DNA from: Candidatus Dojkabacteria bacterium
GTDB lineage: Bacteria > Patescibacteriota > Dojkabacteria > JAOAGR01
DNA: 48,557 nt
NCBI GenBank assembly: GCA_026415655.1
Contig: JAOAGR010000011.1
Span: forward strand, 1 to 48,557
Direction of reading: 5' to 3'
Shown piece by piece: positions 24,343 to 34,305 of the stretch (position 1 is the first letter of the stretch; every line of letters begins with the position of its first letter). Below the pieces are notes generated by a model that saw nothing but the letters and a program-made list of their open reading frames with translations, made no database searches and was not told the origin of the DNA. A program made the translations under genes and the position numbers.

Positions 24343-26010
24343 ATGGTAAAAACGCAAGAAAACGATAGAAGCCTAAATTTTGTGATAGGTGTAATGATCT
24401 TGGGCTCAATTCTAGCTAAGATATCAGGACTCATCAAAATTCAGGTTTTAACATGGGTATTTGGTATTCAATCAAGAGATTTAGACTTATTTAATGCAGC
24501 TAATATCATACCAGAATTTATATTTTCAATTATTGTACTCGGTGGCCTAAATGCAATACTAATACCACTATTTGTTAAAAATGAAAAACAAAAAGAACAA
24601 TTTGAAAAAACTTTTTTTACAATATTAAATCTATTTCTAATATTTTTCATAAGCCTTGCGATTATTACAATATTATTCGCTAATCCATTAGTATTACTGC
24701 TAAATCATCTATTTAGTATTAATCTTTCCGCAGAAGAAATGAAAAAATTTGAGGAGCTATTAAAAATACTAATGTTATCACCTATTTTTTTGTCAACATC
24801 TAGTTTGATCACAAGTGTTTTACAAGCCAAGAAAAAATTTATTTTTACATCCATTACAACACTTGCCTACAATATCGGTTTTGTTCTGGGCATCATAGTA
24901 GCTTATTATTATGATAAAAATGTAATCTTTGTAGCTTGGGGAACAGTAATCGCATCTATGTTTCACTTAATTATACAAATTCCTGAATTACTAAGATATA
25001 TCAATAATTACAAACCCACGATTGATTTGCACAATAAAGAATTAATTAGTAGTCTTAAACAAATATTTCCAAGACTCATAGGAGTATCTGCTGAATATAT
25101 TGGAATAATTTTTCAGAATTTTATAAGTTTAGGACTTGCATACGGATCATTAAACGCCCTCAAAATAGCTATTTCACTACGTGACATGGCTATAGGAATT
25201 ATTGGAATCCCCATAGCGCAGTCCGTTTTTCCCTTTTTATCAGAGGAAAAAGTCAAAAATGTGCACAACAATCAAACTTTAATATATGGAATAAAAATAC
25301 TTTTTATTCTCCTGTTTCCTATATTGTCTATTTTTATAGTACTCAACACTCCAATCGTAATTTTTCTTTTTGGGCTAAACGAATCTAATTATACCGGAAT
25401 AAGCATAGTATCTTTACTAATAGAGATTTTAGCCATTACAATCATAACTTCGTCATTGAATGGAATATTAAATCGCGTTTATTATGCTCTTGGTGACATA
25501 AAAACAACTACATATATTAGTATTTTTATTTTAATATTAAATATTCTTTTGTCATTTTCTCTTGTACACATATTTAGGATTTTTGTATCACCGACTTTTA
25601 ATATATTTTCTCTACAAATTAATTGGACGATAGAAACAACTGAGAGTCAAGTTGCCATAGCCGGTATAGCAACCACAATATCATTGTGTTCAATTATTAA
25701 CAATATTTTATTAATATTCTTTTTAAAAAAGAAACATAAATTAGAACTAAAATTCTTATCATTAATTTTGAAAAAAAAGTTAGTAAACTTTTTTATAACA
25801 ACATTATTAGGATTTTTATTATACATGTATACAAGCAGATATATTGAATCTGTATTTTTAGTTATTTTAATAAATTCTATTTTTATTGTTTTATCTTTTT
25901 ATACTATTTCTAAAATAATTAAAGATGATGACATTGTTATTATTGATAAATATATTATACGAGCTTATTTATACATAAAGTCGAAAACAAACTTCATAAA
26001 ATTTAATTAG
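24343..26010 (+). CDS. murJ: MurJ-type lipid II flippase (MviN/MATE fold)
   Basis: Multi-TM 555 aa; DLFNAANIIPEFIFSIIVLGGLNAILIPLFV, SLRDMAIGIIGIPIAQSVFPFLSEE, LNGILNRVYYALGDIKTTTYISI. Confidence 0.9.
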   Translation: MVKTQENDRSLNFVIGVMILGSILAKISGLIKIQVLTWVFGIQSRDLDLFNAANIIPEFIFSIIVLGGLNAILIPLFVKNEKQKEQFEKTFFTILNLFLIFFISLAIITILFANPLVLLLNHLFSINLSAEEMKKFEELLKILMLSPIFLSTSSLITSVLQAKKKFIFTSITTLAYNIGFVLGIIVAYYYDKNVIFVAWGTVIASMFHLIIQIPELLRYINNYKPTIDLHNKELISSLKQIFPRLIGVSAEYIGIIFQNFISLGLAYGSLNALKIAISLRDMAIGIIGIPIAQSVFPFLSEEKVKNVHNNQTLIYGIKILFILLFPILSIFIVLNTPIVIFLFGLNESNYTGISIVSLLIEILAITIITSSLNGILNRVYYALGDIKTTTYISIFILILNILLSFSLVHIFRIFVSPTFNIFSLQINWTIETTESQVAIAGIATTISLCSIINNILLIFFLKKKHKLELKFLSLILKKKLVNFFITTLLGFLLYMYTSRYIESVFLVILINSIFIVLSFYTISKIIKDDDIVIIDKYIIRAYLYIKSKTNFIKFN

Positions 26011-27067
26011 ACTTTACTATTTTAAATAAATATTTTTTTGTCTTTTCAATAATATTTATATCTTTTAAAACTGAAGAGAATTCTATTGTACCAACTATTA
26101 CACCAAAAATAGAAAGATTATGAGAACCGCATAAAAGTTCCTTGTTATCTTTCATTAGAATTTTCATGTGTATACGTTTCTTTGTGTAATAATGTTCAAA
26201 TCCAAAAATAAATTTGAATATATTAAACAACCAAAGAGCAATAGAATAAGGAAATTTCTTCATATGATGATCTTTAGTATGCGGCGTTATACAAATAATT
26301 CTCATTTTGGGATTTAGAATCTTCTTAATTGCAAACATAAATAGAAAATCAGGTTCAGGTGGCATTTGTTTTACATAAATAATCTCTTCTTTTGCCTGCC
26401 ATATCATTTTCATTCCATCAATATAAGTGCGCGATCTAAAGGGATTGCCAATATCTAAATAATATCTATCTTCTCCATGTTCAAAAATAATATCATCTTT
26501 ATATTTACTATAGTTCAAATTGACGTCATAGATTTTATTAGCTAAATCATTATCAGAAACTCGTATCATAAAATCATGAGATAGTTTTTTGTTCCAATTT
26601 GTTGATCCAAAATAAGCAATCTTATCACCATTTTTTTTATGAATAATTATAACCTTACGATGATCACGCAACGCAAAAGGAATAAATTTTTTATTAAGGT
26701 CAGACAAAGGTCTTGTAAAATAAACAACAGCACCAACACCTTTCATTATTTCAAAGAATAATTCGTTCTTCTGTCTTAGTTTTCTATATTTCTTGGAATT
26801 CTCTTCTTTTTTGCTTATGTAGTAACCAAACTTATTTATTTTATGAATAGAAAACATTTCATCTAGCCAGAAGTTTATTTTGACCTTTTTATCGCGAGCC
26901 AAGTGATAAAGTATGAGTTGCATTTTATTGCGTATATATCCATATTGAAATTTAAAATAAAAAAAATCTATCTGAATAATTCCTTCCTCTAAAAGATCTT
27001 CTTTAAGCCTATTGATAAAATCTTGATCAAATAGAATTTCTATATTTTCTTTATTTTCCATATACAC
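26003..27067 (-). CDS. Phospholipase D-like/cardiolipin synthase-like protein
   Basis: HRKVIIIHKKNGDKIAYFGSTNWN and HMKILMKDNKELLCGSHNLS (HxKx4D plus GS..N motifs). Confidence 0.78.
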   Translation of the reverse strand: MYMENKENIEILFDQDFINRLKEDLLEEGIIQIDFFYFKFQYGYIRNKMQLILYHLARDKKVKINFWLDEMFSIHKINKFGYYISKKEENSKKYRKLRQKNELFFEIMKGVGAVVYFTRPLSDLNKKFIPFALRDHRKVIIIHKKNGDKIAYFGSTNWNKKLSHDFMIRVSDNDLANKIYDVNLNYSKYKDDIIFEHGEDRYYLDIGNPFRSRTYIDGMKMIWQAKEEIIYVKQMPPEPDFLFMFAIKKILNPKMRIICITPHTKDHHMKKFPYSIALWLFNIFKFIFGFEHYYTKKRIHMKILMKDNKELLCGSHNLSIFGVIVGTIEFSSVLKDINIIEKTKKYLFKIVKSN

Positions 27068-27109: not shown

Positions 27110-27868
27110 ATGCCAAATAAAATCAAATTATTCGTTCGAATAATATTAGTAATTTTATTTATTTTTACGATAATTTTTTTTAGTGTAAAAACATACAATG
27201 ATAATTTAGTCAAAAAGGAATTTGAAACAATAAAAGAACAAACGGTTAAAATCTTAGATGTACTTAATGAGATTGTAACAATATACAAAGATACATCTGC
27301 TAACATTAGACAAAAATTTAATGAACTAAAAGACTTATTTTTTTACTATAAAGAGAATTTGCAAGAATTATTAAGGAATAAATCGAACGAAGCTTTAATA
27401 GAATATAAAAACACTGTAGCAAAATTAATACAAAAAGGCGAGGAATTTATATTGTTTTTAGACGAATATATTGATATAAACGAGCTTTTCAACATTATTA
27501 AAGAGAAAATAGCAACTATTTCCGAATATATTAAGAATATAAACCTACAGACGATTGCAGAAACATACGAGTCTATTAAATCCGAACTAGACGCTTTAAT
27601 AGAAAAAATCAATTCCTCAAATATCAGTTTATCAACCAAAGAATTCTTCACAAAATTTGGCTTAGATATAAAAAATTTTATAGAAAATCTGATATCTACC
27701 ATTAAATCAAAGGATTTAACTCTACTAAAAGATATAAAAGACAAAATAAATGAATTTATTGTCAGATCAAAAAATGAAATTACTGTGTTTATGGAAAAGC
27801 TATTTAATAAAGGAAATGAATCAATCAATGAAATTAACCAGATAATAAAAGACTTCGAGAAATTTTAG
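27110..27868 (+). CDS. Hypothetical single-pass membrane, coiled-coil protein
   Basis: N-terminal TM IKLFVRIILVILFIFTIIFFSVKTY and extended heptad-like helical body. Confidence 0.65.
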   Translation: MPNKIKLFVRIILVILFIFTIIFFSVKTYNDNLVKKEFETIKEQTVKILDVLNEIVTIYKDTSANIRQKFNELKDLFFYYKENLQELLRNKSNEALIEYKNTVAKLIQKGEEFILFLDEYIDINELFNIIKEKIATISEYIKNINLQTIAETYESIKSELDALIEKINSSNISLSTKEFFTKFGLDIKNFIENLISTIKSKDLTLLKDIKDKINEFIVRSKNEITVFMEKLFNKGNESINEINQIIKDFEKF

Positions 27869-27907: not shown

Positions 27908-30493
27908 ATGTATTTCATGAGGAGCATACTAGTTTTATGTACAATAACAGTTTTGTTAATAAATTACATAACCCCTAATGCAGAACATACTAGTTTTATA
28001 AAAGCATCCAAAACAGAAACAGAAAAAAACGCAAACCAAAGATACCGAAGTGTGTATGCTGATATCAAGACCGACAGTTTCATCACAATCAAAAGCATAA
28101 ATGGTAAAAGAACATTAGATAAAATACCAGCACATATTAAACTGAGTTTTAATACACACAACAATCTTTATCCTAACTTCATTAGAAAACCACTAAGTAT
28201 ACCTAACGATCCTCTTTATAACAGCACTGGAACAATAATTACTGGCGAACCTGATCAGTGGAATCTTCGTCAAATCGATCTTTTACCAACTATTGATCCC
28301 AACTCCGCATGGAACATAAATACCGGTAGTGAAGAAACAATAATAGCAGTAATTGACACTGGTATAGATTTGACTCATCCCGACATAATAAATTATGACA
28401 AGTCTACAAATATTTATTACCCATCTAATATCTGGGTGAATCAAAATGAGATTCCAAATTCTTTAAAGTCTATTCTGGATACTGACAATAATGACTATGT
28501 AGACACCAAAGAAATAATTACATACTATATTAACAACAATCTTGATTTAGACAATGACAGTAAAATCACTTTCAAAGATGTACTGATTTATAGTTCAACA
28601 GTCGGTGTGAATATAATAGCTGATAACACAGATCAAGATAATAATAATATCAAAGACGATATATTCGGTGCAAGAATGAATTATGGTAACGATAACAATG
28701 ATGTAAATTATCTTGATAATCATGGCATTGGAGTTGCAGGTATAATTGGTGCTGCAAAATCTAATAACGCTATCGGTATATCTGGTATTTGTTTTTCTTG
28801 TAAAATAATGGTGATAAATCCTTTTCAAGTTATCACCGGGTTTGGGGTTGGAGCATATGACATAGATATTGTAAGATCTATAGAATATGCAATTAATCAA
28901 GGTGCAGATATAATAAATTTAAGCCTTGGCGGTGAGGGATATAGTGCCTTATTTGATCAATACATAGAGGATGCATGGAATCAAGGAATTTTAGTAGTTG
29001 CCGCTGCTGGTAATAGTAACATGGATGTAGATCGATTTAGCCCAGCATCCAGCGATAGAGTCATTACAGTAGGAGCTTCATCCTTCAACAAAACTAAACT
29101 ATCTTTTTCTAATCATGGTAATAAATTAGATATAATGGCACCAGGAGGAAATATTCTCTCAACAAGCAGTACCTCTATGTCATCCTGTATTGGGTCAAAC
29201 ACAAAATATAACTGTGTCTGGGGAACGTCAATAGCTGCTCCACATGTTTCTGGAGTAGCTGGTTTGATACACTCATACAGTGTTAGTAACGGTTGGAATG
29301 CAAAACAGATAAGAAAGGCTATACTGAAATCAACCGAGGATCTTTCCAGCCCAGGTTTTGACACTCAAACGGGTTATGGATTTTTAAGAGCAAAAGCCGC
29401 TCTAGAGTATAACTATATCCCCGATACTACTTCTCCTACTCTCTCAATAACAGAGCCAAATGATAATGAGATATTATCTTCAAATATTTTAATCAGAGGC
29501 AGTGTAAATGATAATGATCTATACAATGTAAGAGTCACTATCCTAAACATGTGGAACTGGCCCATATATAAGCAAACAAGAAAAGGATCGGTGAATAACA
29601 ATATAATATTTGATATCAATACTATTACTAATTATATTCCTGATGGTACGTATACAATACGAATTCAAGCTGAAGATTTTGATGGCAACATGTCCACAGA
29701 GGAAAGAAATATTACTATCAGAAAAGGTGCATACATCCAAATTACCACACCTGATGGCCAGATCACAAATAATAAAAGACCAACTATTAATTGGGACGTA
29801 GTAAATAATCCTAATCCAAGTTATACAAAATGGTATTTTGAAATAGAAGAAATTGGAAGTATCTCAAACAAATTTGTAGTAAACGACACAAATGCCCGTT
29901 CATTTACATTTCCAAATGATTTAGAATTTATAAATCAAGAAACTTTTATATCAATAACATCTGTCGTATGCTTTGATAACCCCTCACAATGCTATGATTA
30001 TGAAGAAGATTGTCATACGATCAGTTACACCGCTGATACCATATCACCTTCGCAACCTAATGCTGAATTGGAAATCAACCGAAACAACATAAAGCTTAAA
30101 AATTTTACTTCCTCTGATAATTTAGCTGGTATCAAAGAATATATTGTAACTTTCAATGCATCAAATACTGCAGTACTACCAGGCAATGAATACAATGCAA
30201 ATAATCTTAATGACGGTAATTATACAATTAGTATAAAAGCAAAAGATAATGCAAATAATGAATCAGTACCAAAAGAAATAACATTTGAAATAACTGCACT
30301 TAGAGATTTTCGCAAAACAAAAGCAGATTTTAATAATGACGGAATAGTTAACATTTCTGATCTAAGTATATTAGCTGCCCGATGGCTGCAAGATAATGAT
30401 GTAGCGGATGCTAACGGTGATAACAGAACAAATCTTTCAGACCTAAGTATTTTAGCGGCTAACTGGCAACGCAGATTTGATACTCTAGAATAA
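27908..30493 (+). CDS. Secreted S8 subtilisin-like protease with EF-hand insertion, Ig-like region and C-terminal type I dockerin
   Basis: Signal-like N-terminus; AVIDTGIDLTHPD, DNHGIGVAGIIGA, WGTSIAAPHVSGVAGL; dockerin ADFNNDGIVNISDLSILAARW / ADANGDNRTNLSDLSILAANW. Confidence 0.95.
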   Translation: MYFMRSILVLCTITVLLINYITPNAEHTSFIKASKTETEKNANQRYRSVYADIKTDSFITIKSINGKRTLDKIPAHIKLSFNTHNNLYPNFIRKPLSIPNDPLYNSTGTIITGEPDQWNLRQIDLLPTIDPNSAWNINTGSEETIIAVIDTGIDLTHPDIINYDKSTNIYYPSNIWVNQNEIPNSLKSILDTDNNDYVDTKEIITYYINNNLDLDNDSKITFKDVLIYSSTVGVNIIADNTDQDNNNIKDDIFGARMNYGNDNNDVNYLDNHGIGVAGIIGAAKSNNAIGISGICFSCKIMVINPFQVITGFGVGAYDIDIVRSIEYAINQGADIINLSLGGEGYSALFDQYIEDAWNQGILVVAAAGNSNMDVDRFSPASSDRVITVGASSFNKTKLSFSNHGNKLDIMAPGGNILSTSSTSMSSCIGSNTKYNCVWGTSIAAPHVSGVAGLIHSYSVSNGWNAKQIRKAILKSTEDLSSPGFDTQTGYGFLRAKAALEYNYIPDTTSPTLSITEPNDNEILSSNILIRGSVNDNDLYNVRVTILNMWNWPIYKQTRKGSVNNNIIFDINTITNYIPDGTYTIRIQAEDFDGNMSTEERNITIRKGAYIQITTPDGQITNNKRPTINWDVVNNPNPSYTKWYFEIEEIGSISNKFVVNDTNARSFTFPNDLEFINQETFISITSVVCFDNPSQCYDYEEDCHTISYTADTISPSQPNAELEINRNNIKLKNFTSSDNLAGIKEYIVTFNASNTAVLPGNEYNANNLNDGNYTISIKAKDNANNESVPKEITFEITALRDFRKTKADFNNDGIVNISDLSILAARWLQDNDVADANGDNRTNLSDLSILAANWQRRFDTLE

Positions 30494-30518
30494 AAATGTT
30501 AATAAAAAGTAATTTAAT

Positions 30519-31961
30519 ATGACAAAGAATATATTAAAAAAATTAGTACTGATAATTTGCTTATTTTTTTTGAATTTAAGCATTTTTTTACAATATCCAG
30601 AAAATCAGGTACACGCAGCAGGCTCTATAATAATCACAGGACCAAATCAAGTATATCCGAATCAAACATTTGATATAACAGTTTTTGTTACAAGAGATCA
30701 AGCTTATAATGCCGTAGATATATCAATTAATGTAGGTGCTTTTTCAATACAATCTGTTAATTTAATTGGTGGCTGGACGCCTATAACAGGTCCTACAACA
30801 AGCGGAAGCAATATATCGTTTTCTGGCGCAATTCTAGGACAACAACTAAATGGGCAAAAAGAGGTCTTATCCATAAAATTGAGTTCACCAAATTCATTAC
30901 AAAGCATAACTATAACTGGGAATGGATCAGTAAGCGGTGAAGGATTCGGTACCGGATCCGATAATGTTTCCGGATCTAAAGTTATAAGTGTTTCACCAAC
31001 ACCTACTCCATCTCCCACACCTACTCCACGTCCAAGACAAAATACTCCGACACCTACTCCATCTCCCACGCCAAATCCACAAAATTTATTACCCTCTATA
31101 ACTTCAATAAATTCGACATCTCATCAAGAACCAAATAAATGGTACAACAATAAAAATGTTACTGTAACATGGACTGCGAATAATAATGCTAATGGATTTA
31201 ACTATGAATTTAGTAAAAATACTACGTCAAATCTGACAAACGAAATAAAAACAACTTCTACAACGGTATCTTCAGAGTTAAACGATGGCGAAAATTACTT
31301 TCATGTGAAAGCAAAGAACAATAATGGATGGGGACAAATATCATCTTTTAAGATAAATATTGATACTCTACCACCAGAAGATTTTGATATAACAATAAAC
31401 CAAATAAATAATAACGCGTATCAAATTAGTTTTAATACAACAGATTCACTATCCGGTATAAACAAATATGAAGTCTATATAGATAATGTTCTTTTATCAA
31501 ACGGCACTTCGCCAATAACAGTTCAAACATCTTTTTCTGAAGTTAAAGTAATAGCGTTCGACAACGCTGGAAATCAAAATGTATCTGTCAAAAAATTAAA
31601 TTCATCACAAACTCCATCGCCTACCAGCATAAATGATAATCATTCAAATATAGATTCGAATAGTACAATGAATAATGGCTCGATAAATAATAAGAATTCG
31701 GAAAAAATTCAAAATAATCTAGAACAAATAGGATTAATTGTGTCGCTTATACTGAATATACTCTTATTAATTTACGCTATTATTATGTCATATTTGTACT
31801 TTTTCAAGAAAAAGTCTAATGACAAACAAGATTCATTTATGCAAGCTAAAGAATCCATATATTCTAATAAAAATGAGGTCTCAACAGATCAAAATCAAGA
31901 ACCAGTTTTTACTTACGATCCCAGTCCCTTGGTAAATCATAAGCCCAAAAAGGAAAACTAA
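30519..31961 (+). CDS. Membrane-anchored cohesin-like protein with Pro/Thr linker and Ig/FN3-like domains
   Basis: Signal peptide; IIITGPNQVYPNQTFDITVFVTRDQAYNAVDISINVGAFSIQSVNLIGGW...ISFSGAILGQQLNGQKEVLSIKL cohesin-like; TPTPSPTPTPRPRQNTPTPTPSPTPNP linker; C-terminal TM. Confidence 0.8.
   Translation: MTKNILKKLVLIICLFFLNLSIFLQYPENQVHAAGSIIITGPNQVYPNQTFDITVFVTRDQAYNAVDISINVGAFSIQSVNLIGGWTPITGPTTSGSNISFSGAILGQQLNGQKEVLSIKLSSPNSLQSITITGNGSVSGEGFGTGSDNVSGSKVISVSPTPTPSPTPTPRPRQNTPTPTPSPTPNPQNLLPSITSINSTSHQEPNKWYNNKNVTVTWTANNNANGFNYEFSKNTTSNLTNEIKTTSTTVSSELNDGENYFHVKAKNNNGWGQISSFKINIDTLPPEDFDITINQINNNAYQISFNTTDSLSGINKYEVYIDNVLLSNGTSPITVQTSFSEVKVIAFDNAGNQNVSVKKLNSSQTPSPTSINDNHSNIDSNSTMNNGSINNKNSEKIQNNLEQIGLIVSLILNILLLIYAIIMSYLYFFKKKSNDKQDSFMQAKESIYSNKNEVSTDQNQEPVFTYDPSPLVNHKPKKEN
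30999..31069 (+). repeat. Direct repeat in linker coding region (ACACCTACTCCATCTCCCAC x2)
   Basis: 20-nt identical copies at 30999-31018 and 31050-31069. Confidence 0.85.
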
Positions 31962-31980
31962 TATTTTGATATAATAAATT

Positions 31981-33171
31981 ATGAAAACAATAAAAACAGT
32001 TGGTGTATTTTTTGGAAGTAAATCAGCAGAGCATGAGATATCAATTGTCACTGGGCAGTTAATTATTAATACCTTAAAGAAGCTAGGATATAAAGTAATA
32101 CCAGTATACATAACAAAACAAGGTAAATGGATAGTAGATGAAAGACTATCAAACATCACTTTTTTTACACAAAATACTGACTTCGTAGAGTCACCTGAAA
32201 AGTATATTAAGTCTAACTTTAGTATTGATGTCACGGCTACAAAAAAAATTGTGATTAGATCATTTGGTAAGCTTTTTCCAACTACTTATGAAATAGATAT
32301 TGCGTTTCCTGCTCTTCATGGCACTTTTGGAGAAGATGGAACGATACAAGGTATATTTGAAATGCTAAACGTACCATATGTAGGTTGTAATGTAACTTCT
32401 TCAGCTATAGCAATGGATAAATCGCTAACCAAAGAATTGATTTCTTTTCATGGGATTCCTACTCCAGATTTTATTACTTTTCATAAAGATGAATGGAAAT
32501 TAGATAAAGATTCATTGATTCAAAACATACAAAGTAAGCTTAAGCTACCTGTTTTCGTTAAACCACCACATACAGGATCATCAATCGGTATAACAAAGGT
32601 TAAATCTTGGGATGATCTTGAGAATGCTATTGAAGTTGGATTTTTTTATGATAACAAAATTTTAGTAGAACAAGGTATAGAAAATACTCTAGATCTAACC
32701 TGTTGTGTAATTGGTGTTGATAAACCAATAGCTTCTCTTATTCAACAATCAGAGTTTAAATCTGACCTTTTTGATTTTAATGAAAAATATATAAATGATG
32801 GCGGAACACAAACAGGTAATGCAACCAAAAATTTGATTATTCCTGCAAAGATTGATTCTGAAACAACAGATAAAATTCGAAAGACCGCTATAAATGTATA
32901 TAAAATTCTAGGAGCAACTGGTATAGCTAGAGTTGATTTCGTAATGGATAGCAACACAAAAGAATTTTATGTTACTGAAGTTAATCCGCTTCCTGGAACA
33001 CTATATCATCACTTATGGAAGGCCAGTGGCATTGAAATAGAAGAATTAGTAGAAAATCTCATTGAATATGCTATCCAAGCACATTTAGAAAAAAATGAAA
33101 TCGAATATACATTTAAATCTGATGTTTTGAATAATCTAAAAGGACAAAAACTTAAAAGTGTAACCGAATAG
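31981..33171 (+). CDS. ddl: D-alanine--D-alanine ligase
   Basis: VGVFFGSKSAEHEISIVTGQ, FPALHGTFGEDGTIQGIFEMLNVPYVGC, VKPPHTGSSIGI, EVNPLPGTLYHHLW. Confidence 0.96.
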   Translation: MKTIKTVGVFFGSKSAEHEISIVTGQLIINTLKKLGYKVIPVYITKQGKWIVDERLSNITFFTQNTDFVESPEKYIKSNFSIDVTATKKIVIRSFGKLFPTTYEIDIAFPALHGTFGEDGTIQGIFEMLNVPYVGCNVTSSAIAMDKSLTKELISFHGIPTPDFITFHKDEWKLDKDSLIQNIQSKLKLPVFVKPPHTGSSIGITKVKSWDDLENAIEVGFFYDNKILVEQGIENTLDLTCCVIGVDKPIASLIQQSEFKSDLFDFNEKYINDGGTQTGNATKNLIIPAKIDSETTDKIRKTAINVYKILGATGIARVDFVMDSNTKEFYVTEVNPLPGTLYHHLWKASGIEIEELVENLIEYAIQAHLEKNEIEYTFKSDVLNNLKGQKLKSVTE

Positions 33172-33183
33172 ATTAGCAAATTC

Positions 33184-34305
33184 ATGAAAATTCATAATGT
33201 TTTTATATCTAAAGACGCCCTTTTACACAATTTTCATCTGTTCAAATCATACGTGCACCATAGCACAAAAATAGCATGTGTTGTTAAAGCCGATGCTTAT
33301 GGACATGGTATAGAAAATATAGTACCAATCCTCGATCCGCATGCGGACATGTTTCAAGTTGATGACGTAAATGAACTTATTAAAATTCGCAAATATACTT
33401 CTAAAAAAGTTTTAGTACTAGGATTTGTGAGTGTAGAAGATATTGAGGAAATTGTAAAAAACAATGGTACTCTAGGTATATTTTCAAAAGAGCAAATAAT
33501 TGCATTAGAACAGATTTTAGAAAAGCACGACAACTCAATAAACGTACATTTAGCCGTAGATAGCCTAATGGGAAGAGAAGGATTTGTTTTTGAATCAATC
33601 GAACTTGACGAGATTTTAGATATAATAGCACACAGCAAATTTATAAAGCTAGAAGGAGTCTACTCTCATTTTAGCAATGCTGATGATCTTACACTACATC
33701 CAGAACATACTCAAAAACAAGTTAATTTATATGAAAAGTTCTTAGAAAAAATCAGAAAATATGGATTTAAACATATAACGCGTCATATCTCTTCAACAAG
33801 CGGAACTATAATATATGATAAAAATTTTGGTAAGAATGACATTGTAAGAATCGGTGCAGGACTGTATGGTATATATCCCTCAGAAGATATTAAGTCTTTT
33901 TTGCATCAAAAAAATTTATATCTAAAGCCAGTATTATCATGGAAAACTTTTATTGCTCAGATAAAGACAGTACCTCCTAGAACTCCAATTGGATACAATA
34001 TGACTTATACAACAAACCGATTCACAAAAATAGCTGTGATACCTGTTGGATATAGCGATGGTTATGATAGAAGACTTTCAAACAAAGGTTACGTTTTGAT
34101 TCATGGAAAAAAGGCACCAGTAATTGGCCGAATAAGCATGAATATGCTCACAGTAGATATTACAGATATTCATTCCCCTACTCCCAGTATAGAAGATGAA
34201 GTAGTATTAATAGGTGAACAAGAAAACCAAAAAATTACAGCTTCGGAACTTGCAAATTTATGCGGAACTATAGAATATGAAATATTATCTAGGATAAAAA
34301 GATAG
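33184..34305 (+). CDS. alr: Alanine racemase
   Basis: ACVVKADAYGHGIENIVP (PLP Lys), RIGAGLYGIYPSED, VIPVGYSDGYDRRLSNKG, PVIGRISMNMLTVDIT. Confidence 0.97.
   Translation: MKIHNVFISKDALLHNFHLFKSYVHHSTKIACVVKADAYGHGIENIVPILDPHADMFQVDDVNELIKIRKYTSKKVLVLGFVSVEDIEEIVKNNGTLGIFSKEQIIALEQILEKHDNSINVHLAVDSLMGREGFVFESIELDEILDIIAHSKFIKLEGVYSHFSNADDLTLHPEHTQKQVNLYEKFLEKIRKYGFKHITRHISSTSGTIIYDKNFGKNDIVRIGAGLYGIYPSEDIKSFLHQKNLYLKPVLSWKTFIAQIKTVPPRTPIGYNMTYTTNRFTKIAVIPVGYSDGYDRRLSNKGYVLIHGKKAPVIGRISMNMLTVDITDIHSPTPSIEDEVVLIGEQENQKITASELANLCGTIEYEILSRIKR

What the first reader, a model, noticed from the sequence alone, without database searches (positions are those of the whole stretch)
27908..31961. Adjacent dockerin-tagged subtilase and membrane-anchored cohesin: a two-gene surface protease display system
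Seen: a secreted S8 protease ends in a two-repeat type I dockerin (ADFNNDGIVNISDLSILAARW / ADANGDNRTNLSDLSILAANW). 25 nt downstream on the same strand is a protein with signal peptide, cohesin-like domain, Pro/Thr linker, Ig/FN3-like modules and a C-terminal TM anchor. Established: cohesin-dockerin pairs bind tightly, are best known from cellulosomes, and occur more widely. Inference: the protease is secreted, docks on the anchored cohesin and is held on the cell surface. No glycoside hydrolase is visible, so this would be a protease-only mini-scaffold, possibly for episymbiotic host attack or nutrient release.
Basis: partly seen in the sequence, partly recalled or inferred. Interest (0 to 1): 0.85.

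Follow-up and report, generated by a model that had tools for sequence, protein, structure and literature searches.

The report
Surface-anchored cohesin and dockerin-tagged protease
A tiny Dojkabacteria bacterium carries, side by side, a secreted protease ending in a molecular plug (dockerin) and a membrane protein carrying the predicted socket (cohesin), and the same plug-and-socket gene pairing with changing cargo recurs across the candidate phyla radiation, which suggests a widely used but little-described way for these bacteria to hold proteins on their surface.

Summary
The subtilase (27908-30493) has a complete S8 catalytic set and ends in a two-loop dockerin. The next gene (30519-31961, 25 nt on) is signal peptide, nine-strand domain, Pro/Thr linker, two Ig-like modules, TM helix, tail. 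Pfam's cohesin model misses that domain, but its predicted fold (pLDDT 90.7) has C. perfringens cohesin modules as best PDB matches (TM 0.72-0.79). The domain occurs in 4 of 87 Dojkabacteria genomes, each time 100-158 bp downstream of a matching dockerin. The dockerin is the most conserved part of the subtilase; in one genome the cargo is an NHL propeller instead.

G000 holds a second dockerin/cohesin-like pair. Class-wide, 12 of 92 Pfam cohesins lie beside a same-strand dockerin (0.23 expected); across 191 genomes of the phylum, 38 of 86 do (0.25 expected), usually dockerin upstream. The conserved part is a swappable dockerin client plus a single-cohesin membrane anchor, not protease display or a scaffold. 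Binding is inferred: no co-fold or pulldown was possible. Nothing supports host attack. I rate it a new variant of the known non-cellulosomal cohesin-dockerin theme; no phylum-wide description was found in the searched papers.

The parts
27908..30493 (+). secreted S8 subtilase with Ig-like modules and a C-terminal dockerin (client)
28334..29380 (+). peptidase S8 domain, catalytic D150, H272, S441, oxyanion N369
   Evidence: PF00082 3e-49; motif positions
29435..30292 (+). Ig-like spacer modules (residues ~510-795)
   Evidence: Pfam Y_Y_Y, Big_13, Glucodextran_B-like matches
30323..30457 (+). dockerin, two Ca-loop repeats (ADFNNDGIVNISDLSILAARW / ADANGDNRTNLSDLSILAANW)
   Evidence: PF00404 28.3 bits over cut-off; PDB dockerins 2y3n 2.5e-7; 63-73% identical in relatives
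30519..31961 (+). single-cohesin membrane anchor protein (480 aa)
30519..30617 (+). signal peptide region (inferred from the hydrophobic N-terminus)
   Evidence: sequence; helix 3-24 in model
30612..31001 (+). cohesin-fold domain, nine strands
   Evidence: AF2 pLDDT 90.7, pTM 0.85; Foldseek top hits C. perfringens cohesins 2jh2, 2vo8
30999..31085 (+). Pro/Thr linker
   Evidence: sequence; low pLDDT 170-188
31086..31598 (+). two Ig-like modules (residues ~190-283 and 284-360)
   Evidence: strands in model; NCBIfam OmpL47-type weak match 4e-6
31728..31805 (+). transmembrane helix (residues ~404-429) followed by a basic cytoplasmic tail
   Evidence: helix 393-448; conserved hydrophobic stretch in alignment

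Best explanation
This is a client-and-anchor surface display pair. The subtilase is exported; its Ca-dependent C-terminal dockerin docks on the single cohesin of the neighbouring protein, whose linker and Ig modules hold that cohesin away from the membrane in which its C-terminal helix is anchored. The protease is thereby kept on the outside of the cell, probably to cut proteins or surface layers nearby. It is one local version of a toolkit recurrent in Dojkabacteria and other Patescibacteria: a dockerin-bearing secreted protein encoded directly upstream of one or more single-cohesin membrane proteins, with matched specificity types and exchangeable cargo. Shown: genes, catalytic motifs, dockerin, predicted cohesin fold, TM helix, conserved adjacency, cargo swap, dockerin conservation. 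Inferred: binding, calcium dependence, surface location, proteolytic role.
For: Dockerin recognised by Pfam and by PDB dockerin sequences. Cohesin fold: AF2 pLDDT 90.7, best PDB matches cohesins incl. dockerin-bound CaCohA2 and the A. fulgidus cohesin; profile link to other cohesins, Ig modules as negative control. All four genomes with this cohesin have a dockerin 100-158 bp upstream on the same strand. Dockerin identity to relatives 73%/63% versus 46%/42% for the S8 domain and 32%/26% for the Ig part. Cargo swap in G026 with the dockerin kept at 68% identity. The four cohesin-A genomes hold a dockerin group 54-76% identical, against 19-46% to other dockerins, including those of other pairs in the same genomes; none of the other dockerins parsed class-wide belongs to it. 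Invariant residues favour strands 8-3-6-5, the sheet that binds dockerin in known cohesins (10/35 vs 5/52, one-sided p=0.023; weak, and the sheet assignment is from general knowledge). Adjacency class-wide 12 vs 0.23 expected and phylum-wide 38 vs 0.25.
Against: No direct evidence of binding; no co-fold. The cohesin domain is below all sequence thresholds, and the fold search also returns other beta-sandwiches at lower TM (YcnI, integrin, complement C3, CLIPPER adhesin). The model rests on four sequences. Only four genomes carry this exact pair. The chance expectation treats hits as independent, and related genomes and tandem cohesins are not. Protease activity and surface location are untested.
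Confidence: 0.8

Rival explanations
1. The N-terminal domain is a cohesin-fold or other beta-sandwich adhesin that binds something outside the cell; the adjacent dockerin protease binds another cohesin or nothing, and adjacency reflects a shared surface operon only.
For: Domain is sequence-divergent from Pfam cohesins; the fold search includes adhesin and integrin beta-sandwiches; TMEM132 is a published cohesin-Ig-TM adhesion protein without known dockerin (PMC6030884).
Against: Strict dockerin-type/cohesin-type co-occurrence and adjacency, 4 of 4, with cargo swapped; class- and phylum-wide excess of adjacency; profile link to other cohesins.
Confidence: 0.13
2. The dockerin is an internal Ca-stabilised fold cap of the subtilase (EF-hand-like stabilising element) with no docking partner.
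For: Dockerins are EF-hand-like and Ca-bound; subtilases often use Ca for stability (general knowledge; no tool result beyond the dockerin match itself).
Against: The same dockerin type is fused to an unrelated NHL propeller next to the same cohesin; it is conserved far above the rest of the protein.
Confidence: 0.04
3. The pair is a minimal cellulosome-like degradative complex for polysaccharides.
For: Dojkabacteria were predicted to be associated with carbohydrate degradation (PMC7038595).
Against: One cohesin per anchor, no carbohydrate-binding module or glycoside hydrolase in either protein; cargo is protease or propeller; only one dockerin of this type was found in the genome. Genome-wide glycoside hydrolases were not searched.
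Confidence: 0.03

Closest known systems
Non-cellulosomal cohesin-dockerin modules (C. perfringens glycoside hydrolase cohesins 2jh2/2vo8/2w1n; Archaeoglobus fulgidus cohesin 2xdh)
   Same: closest folds to the window domain (TM 0.67-0.79); single cohesin, no scaffold
   Different: here the cohesin sits on a TM anchor and the dockerin on a protease encoded next door; no sequence-level match
Cellulosome (clostridial scaffoldin and dockerin enzymes)
   Same: dockerin sequence matches cellulosomal dockerins (2y3n, 1daq)
   Different: no multi-cohesin scaffold, no CBM or glycoside hydrolase in the two proteins; one-to-one anchor
Cloacimonadota Ca. Stygibacter dockerin peptidases with scaffoldin (PMC8542988)
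   Same: S8 and C25 peptidases with C-terminal dockerins, extracellular
   Different: a 3,755-aa multi-cohesin scaffoldin there, a single-cohesin TM anchor here
ANME archaea dockerin/cohesin surface proteins (PMC9012536)
   Same: many non-cellulosomal proteins whose linked domains vary; function unknown
   Different: archaeal; the gene-adjacency rule seen here is not described in the passages read
Reports in Patescibacteria: essential dockerin protein SEML1_0315 of Southlakia epibionticum (PMC10633639); expressed cohesin and dockerin genes in Shapirobacterales (PMC9123182)
   Same: same phylum, same domain types
   Different: single mentions; no cohesin-dockerin gene pair described in the passages read

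Membership tests
Dockerin (Pfam Dockerin_1, type I-like) | two ~22-residue F-hand Ca loops with D-N-D-N-D pattern | tested here: met
   sequence; PF00404 28.3 bits over cut-off, 22.0 in hmmscan just under; 2y3n_B 2.5e-7
Dockerin (Pfam Dockerin_1, type I-like) | Ca-dependent binding to a cohesin | not testable with these tools
   needs pulldown or ITC with and without Ca2+
Cohesin | Pfam PF00963 sequence match | tested here: not met
   no hit by hmmscan; no hit at this locus in the genome scans
Cohesin | nine-strand jelly-roll cohesin fold | tested here: met
   AF2 nine strands, pLDDT 90.7; Foldseek ranks 1-3 and 5 are cohesins, TM 0.72-0.79. A prediction, not a solved structure
Cohesin | homology to recognised cohesins | tested here: inconclusive
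   hhalign 78%, P 1.7e-5; Ig controls 0.3% and 3.3%; A3 profile hits cohesin-like TM proteins, mostly next to dockerins, in other Patescibacteria at 8e-8 to 9e-4
Peptidase S8 (subtilase) | Asp/His/Ser triad and oxyanion Asn in family motifs | tested here: met
   PF00082 3e-49; D150, H272, N369, S441
Cellulosome | multi-cohesin scaffoldin with CBM and polysaccharidases | tested here: not met
   one cohesin, no CBM or GH in the two proteins; rest of genome not searched for GHs

The most novel reading that the evidence does not exclude
Patescibacteria as a phylum use a modular, orthogonal set of dockerin clients and single-cohesin membrane anchors, encoded as adjacent gene pairs or clusters with matched specificity, as a main means of building their cell-surface protein layer, including proteins needed for contact with host cells.
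Probability: 0.4. Interest if true: 0.8.

Novelty: new variant of a known kind. Interest (0 to 1): 0.62.

Why it matters
How ultra-small, largely uncultured CPR bacteria hold proteins at their surface and touch other cells is poorly known. A recurrent, sequence-recognisable plug-and-socket pairing names candidate surface proteins and their anchors directly from genomes and makes them testable: each pair predicts its own binding partner. An essential dockerin protein is already reported in a genetically tractable Saccharibacteria epibiont (PMC10633639), so the role can be tested there. The orthogonal pairs could also be new display tools.

Tried and rejected
PDB sequence searches with the cohesin domains alone gave only chance matches; the fold search was needed. 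The own-genome Pfam cohesin scan was empty, later explained by divergence. Own-genus, family and order searches hold at most two genomes, too few. Promoter- and terminator-like sites are at shuffle level and say nothing about co-transcription. A joined chain for co-folding was not attempted, since the prediction tool takes single unchanged proteins. Several alignment calls failed on frame errors and were redone or dropped. The Peer et al. 2009 review is not held. ddl- and alr-like genes downstream (31981-34305) were considered as part of the system and dropped: they are not next to the pair in G001.

Full report
What is there.

Client. The 861-aa protein has a PF00082 domain (3e-49) and all catalytic motifs, Ig-like spacers, and a C-terminal pair of Ca loops. 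The dockerin reaches the Pfam cut-off in the genome scan (28.3 bits), falls just under it in hmmscan (22.0 vs 22.9), and matches solved cellulosomal dockerins.

Anchor. The 480-aa neighbour has no cohesin hit in Pfam, NCBIfam or PDB sequences. An AF2 model from four homologs has nine strands, pLDDT 90.7 and pTM 0.85. In the PDB fold search ranks 1, 2, 3 and 5 are C. perfringens cohesin modules (TM 0.72-0.79); the dockerin-bound CaCohA2 (0.67-0.71) and the A. fulgidus cohesin (0.67) follow. Other beta-sandwiches appear at lower TM. A profile comparison with 21 cohesin domains from other Dojkabacteria loci, most of them Pfam-recognised, gives 78% and P 1.7e-5, while the two Ig modules of the same anchors give 0.3% and 3.3%. 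The full-length model (pLDDT 71) shows cohesin, linker, two beta-rich modules and a C-terminal helix.

Conservation. In the class, this cohesin type occurs in 4 of 87 genomes. In all four a dockerin ends 100-158 bp upstream on the same strand. Three clients are subtilases; in G026 the client is an NHL propeller. G021 carries two more dockerin proteins elsewhere (919 and 933 aa; NHL matched in the first, the second similar by eye) with the same dockerin type. Between G000 and G001/G021 the dockerin is 73%/63% identical, the S8 domain 46%/42%, the Ig part 32%/26%. These dockerins are 54-76% identical to each other and 19-46% to other dockerins, including those of other pairs in the same genomes. 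Among the best dockerin loci of the other class genomes I found none of this type (about a third of those loci gave no parse). This is what matched specificity would look like; it is inference, not a binding test.

A wider pattern. G000 has a second pair on C9: a 335-aa dockerin protein followed by a 549-aa SP/cohesin-like/TM protein, with homologous pairs in G048 and G077 and similar ones in G011, G015, G025, G027, G078. Class-wide, PF00963 matches 56 of 87 genomes (E<=0.1) and PF00404 44 of 87 (E<=0.01); 12 of 92 cohesin places have a same-strand dockerin within 1.5 kb, 0.23 expected. In 191 genomes drawn from the phylum, 74 have dockerin and 53 cohesin matches; 38 of 86 cohesins in 29 genomes have a near same-strand dockerin, 35 with the dockerin upstream, 0.25 expected; co-occurrence odds ratio 8.2. 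The expectation assumes independence and a uniform genome size, so the P values overstate, but the size of the excess does not depend on that. Several loci outside the class show a dockerin gene followed by two to four tandem single-cohesin TM proteins.

Mechanism. Best reading: exported client, Ca-dependent docking on a one-cohesin TM anchor, surface retention. It works like a non-cellulosomal cohesin-dockerin pair. Membership: dockerin and S8 met; cohesin fold met by prediction, cohesin sequence test not met; cellulosome not met.

Known or not. Dockerin-tagged S8 peptidases on a multi-cohesin scaffoldin are described in Cloacimonadota (PMC8542988), non-cellulosomal proteins in ANME archaea (PMC9012536), and isolated mentions exist for Patescibacteria (PMC10633639, PMC9123182). 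In the searches made I did not find a paper describing the paired arrangement in this phylum; the library lacks most subscription papers, so novelty is provisional.

Observation right, fold guess borne out, adjacency prediction borne out. 'Protease-only mini-scaffold' and 'host attack' are not supported.

Noticed in passing
L007:6626-9221 (G000:C9): Second dockerin/cohesin-like pair in the same genome: 335-aa dockerin protein with 'VNSLD' loops and a following 549-aa SP/cohesin-like/TM protein; homologous pairs in G048 and G077, similar ones in G011, G015, G025, G027, G078.
   Followed up: partly
window 26003-27067 (-): PLD-like protein, divergent from the pair; a PLD-like gene (33% identical, 114/342) lies beside the pair in G001 too (L006:11728-12840).
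   Followed up: partly
L095, L096, L097, L100, L101: Other Patescibacteria: dockerin gene followed by two to four tandem single-cohesin TM proteins.
   Followed up: partly
G255, G152:C27, G178:C33/C36, G153:C7: Genomes with 8-21 dockerin matches, several in consecutive ORFs: expanded dockerin clusters.
   Followed up: no
L059:4902-5930 (G026:C17): Trypsin-family (S1) protease with a C-terminal dockerin of a different type.
   Followed up: no
L072, L073, L075: Lone 240-270-aa SP/cohesin/TM protein next to a glycosyltransferase-like gene in several genomes of family f15, without a dockerin nearby.
   Followed up: no
L094:3887-4654 (G354): Cohesin-like domain and dockerin in one 255-aa protein, beside further cohesin-TM genes.
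   Followed up: no
window 27110-27868 (+): 252-aa protein with N-terminal hydrophobic stretch and helical, lysine/glutamate-rich body just upstream of the subtilase; no confident family.
   Followed up: no
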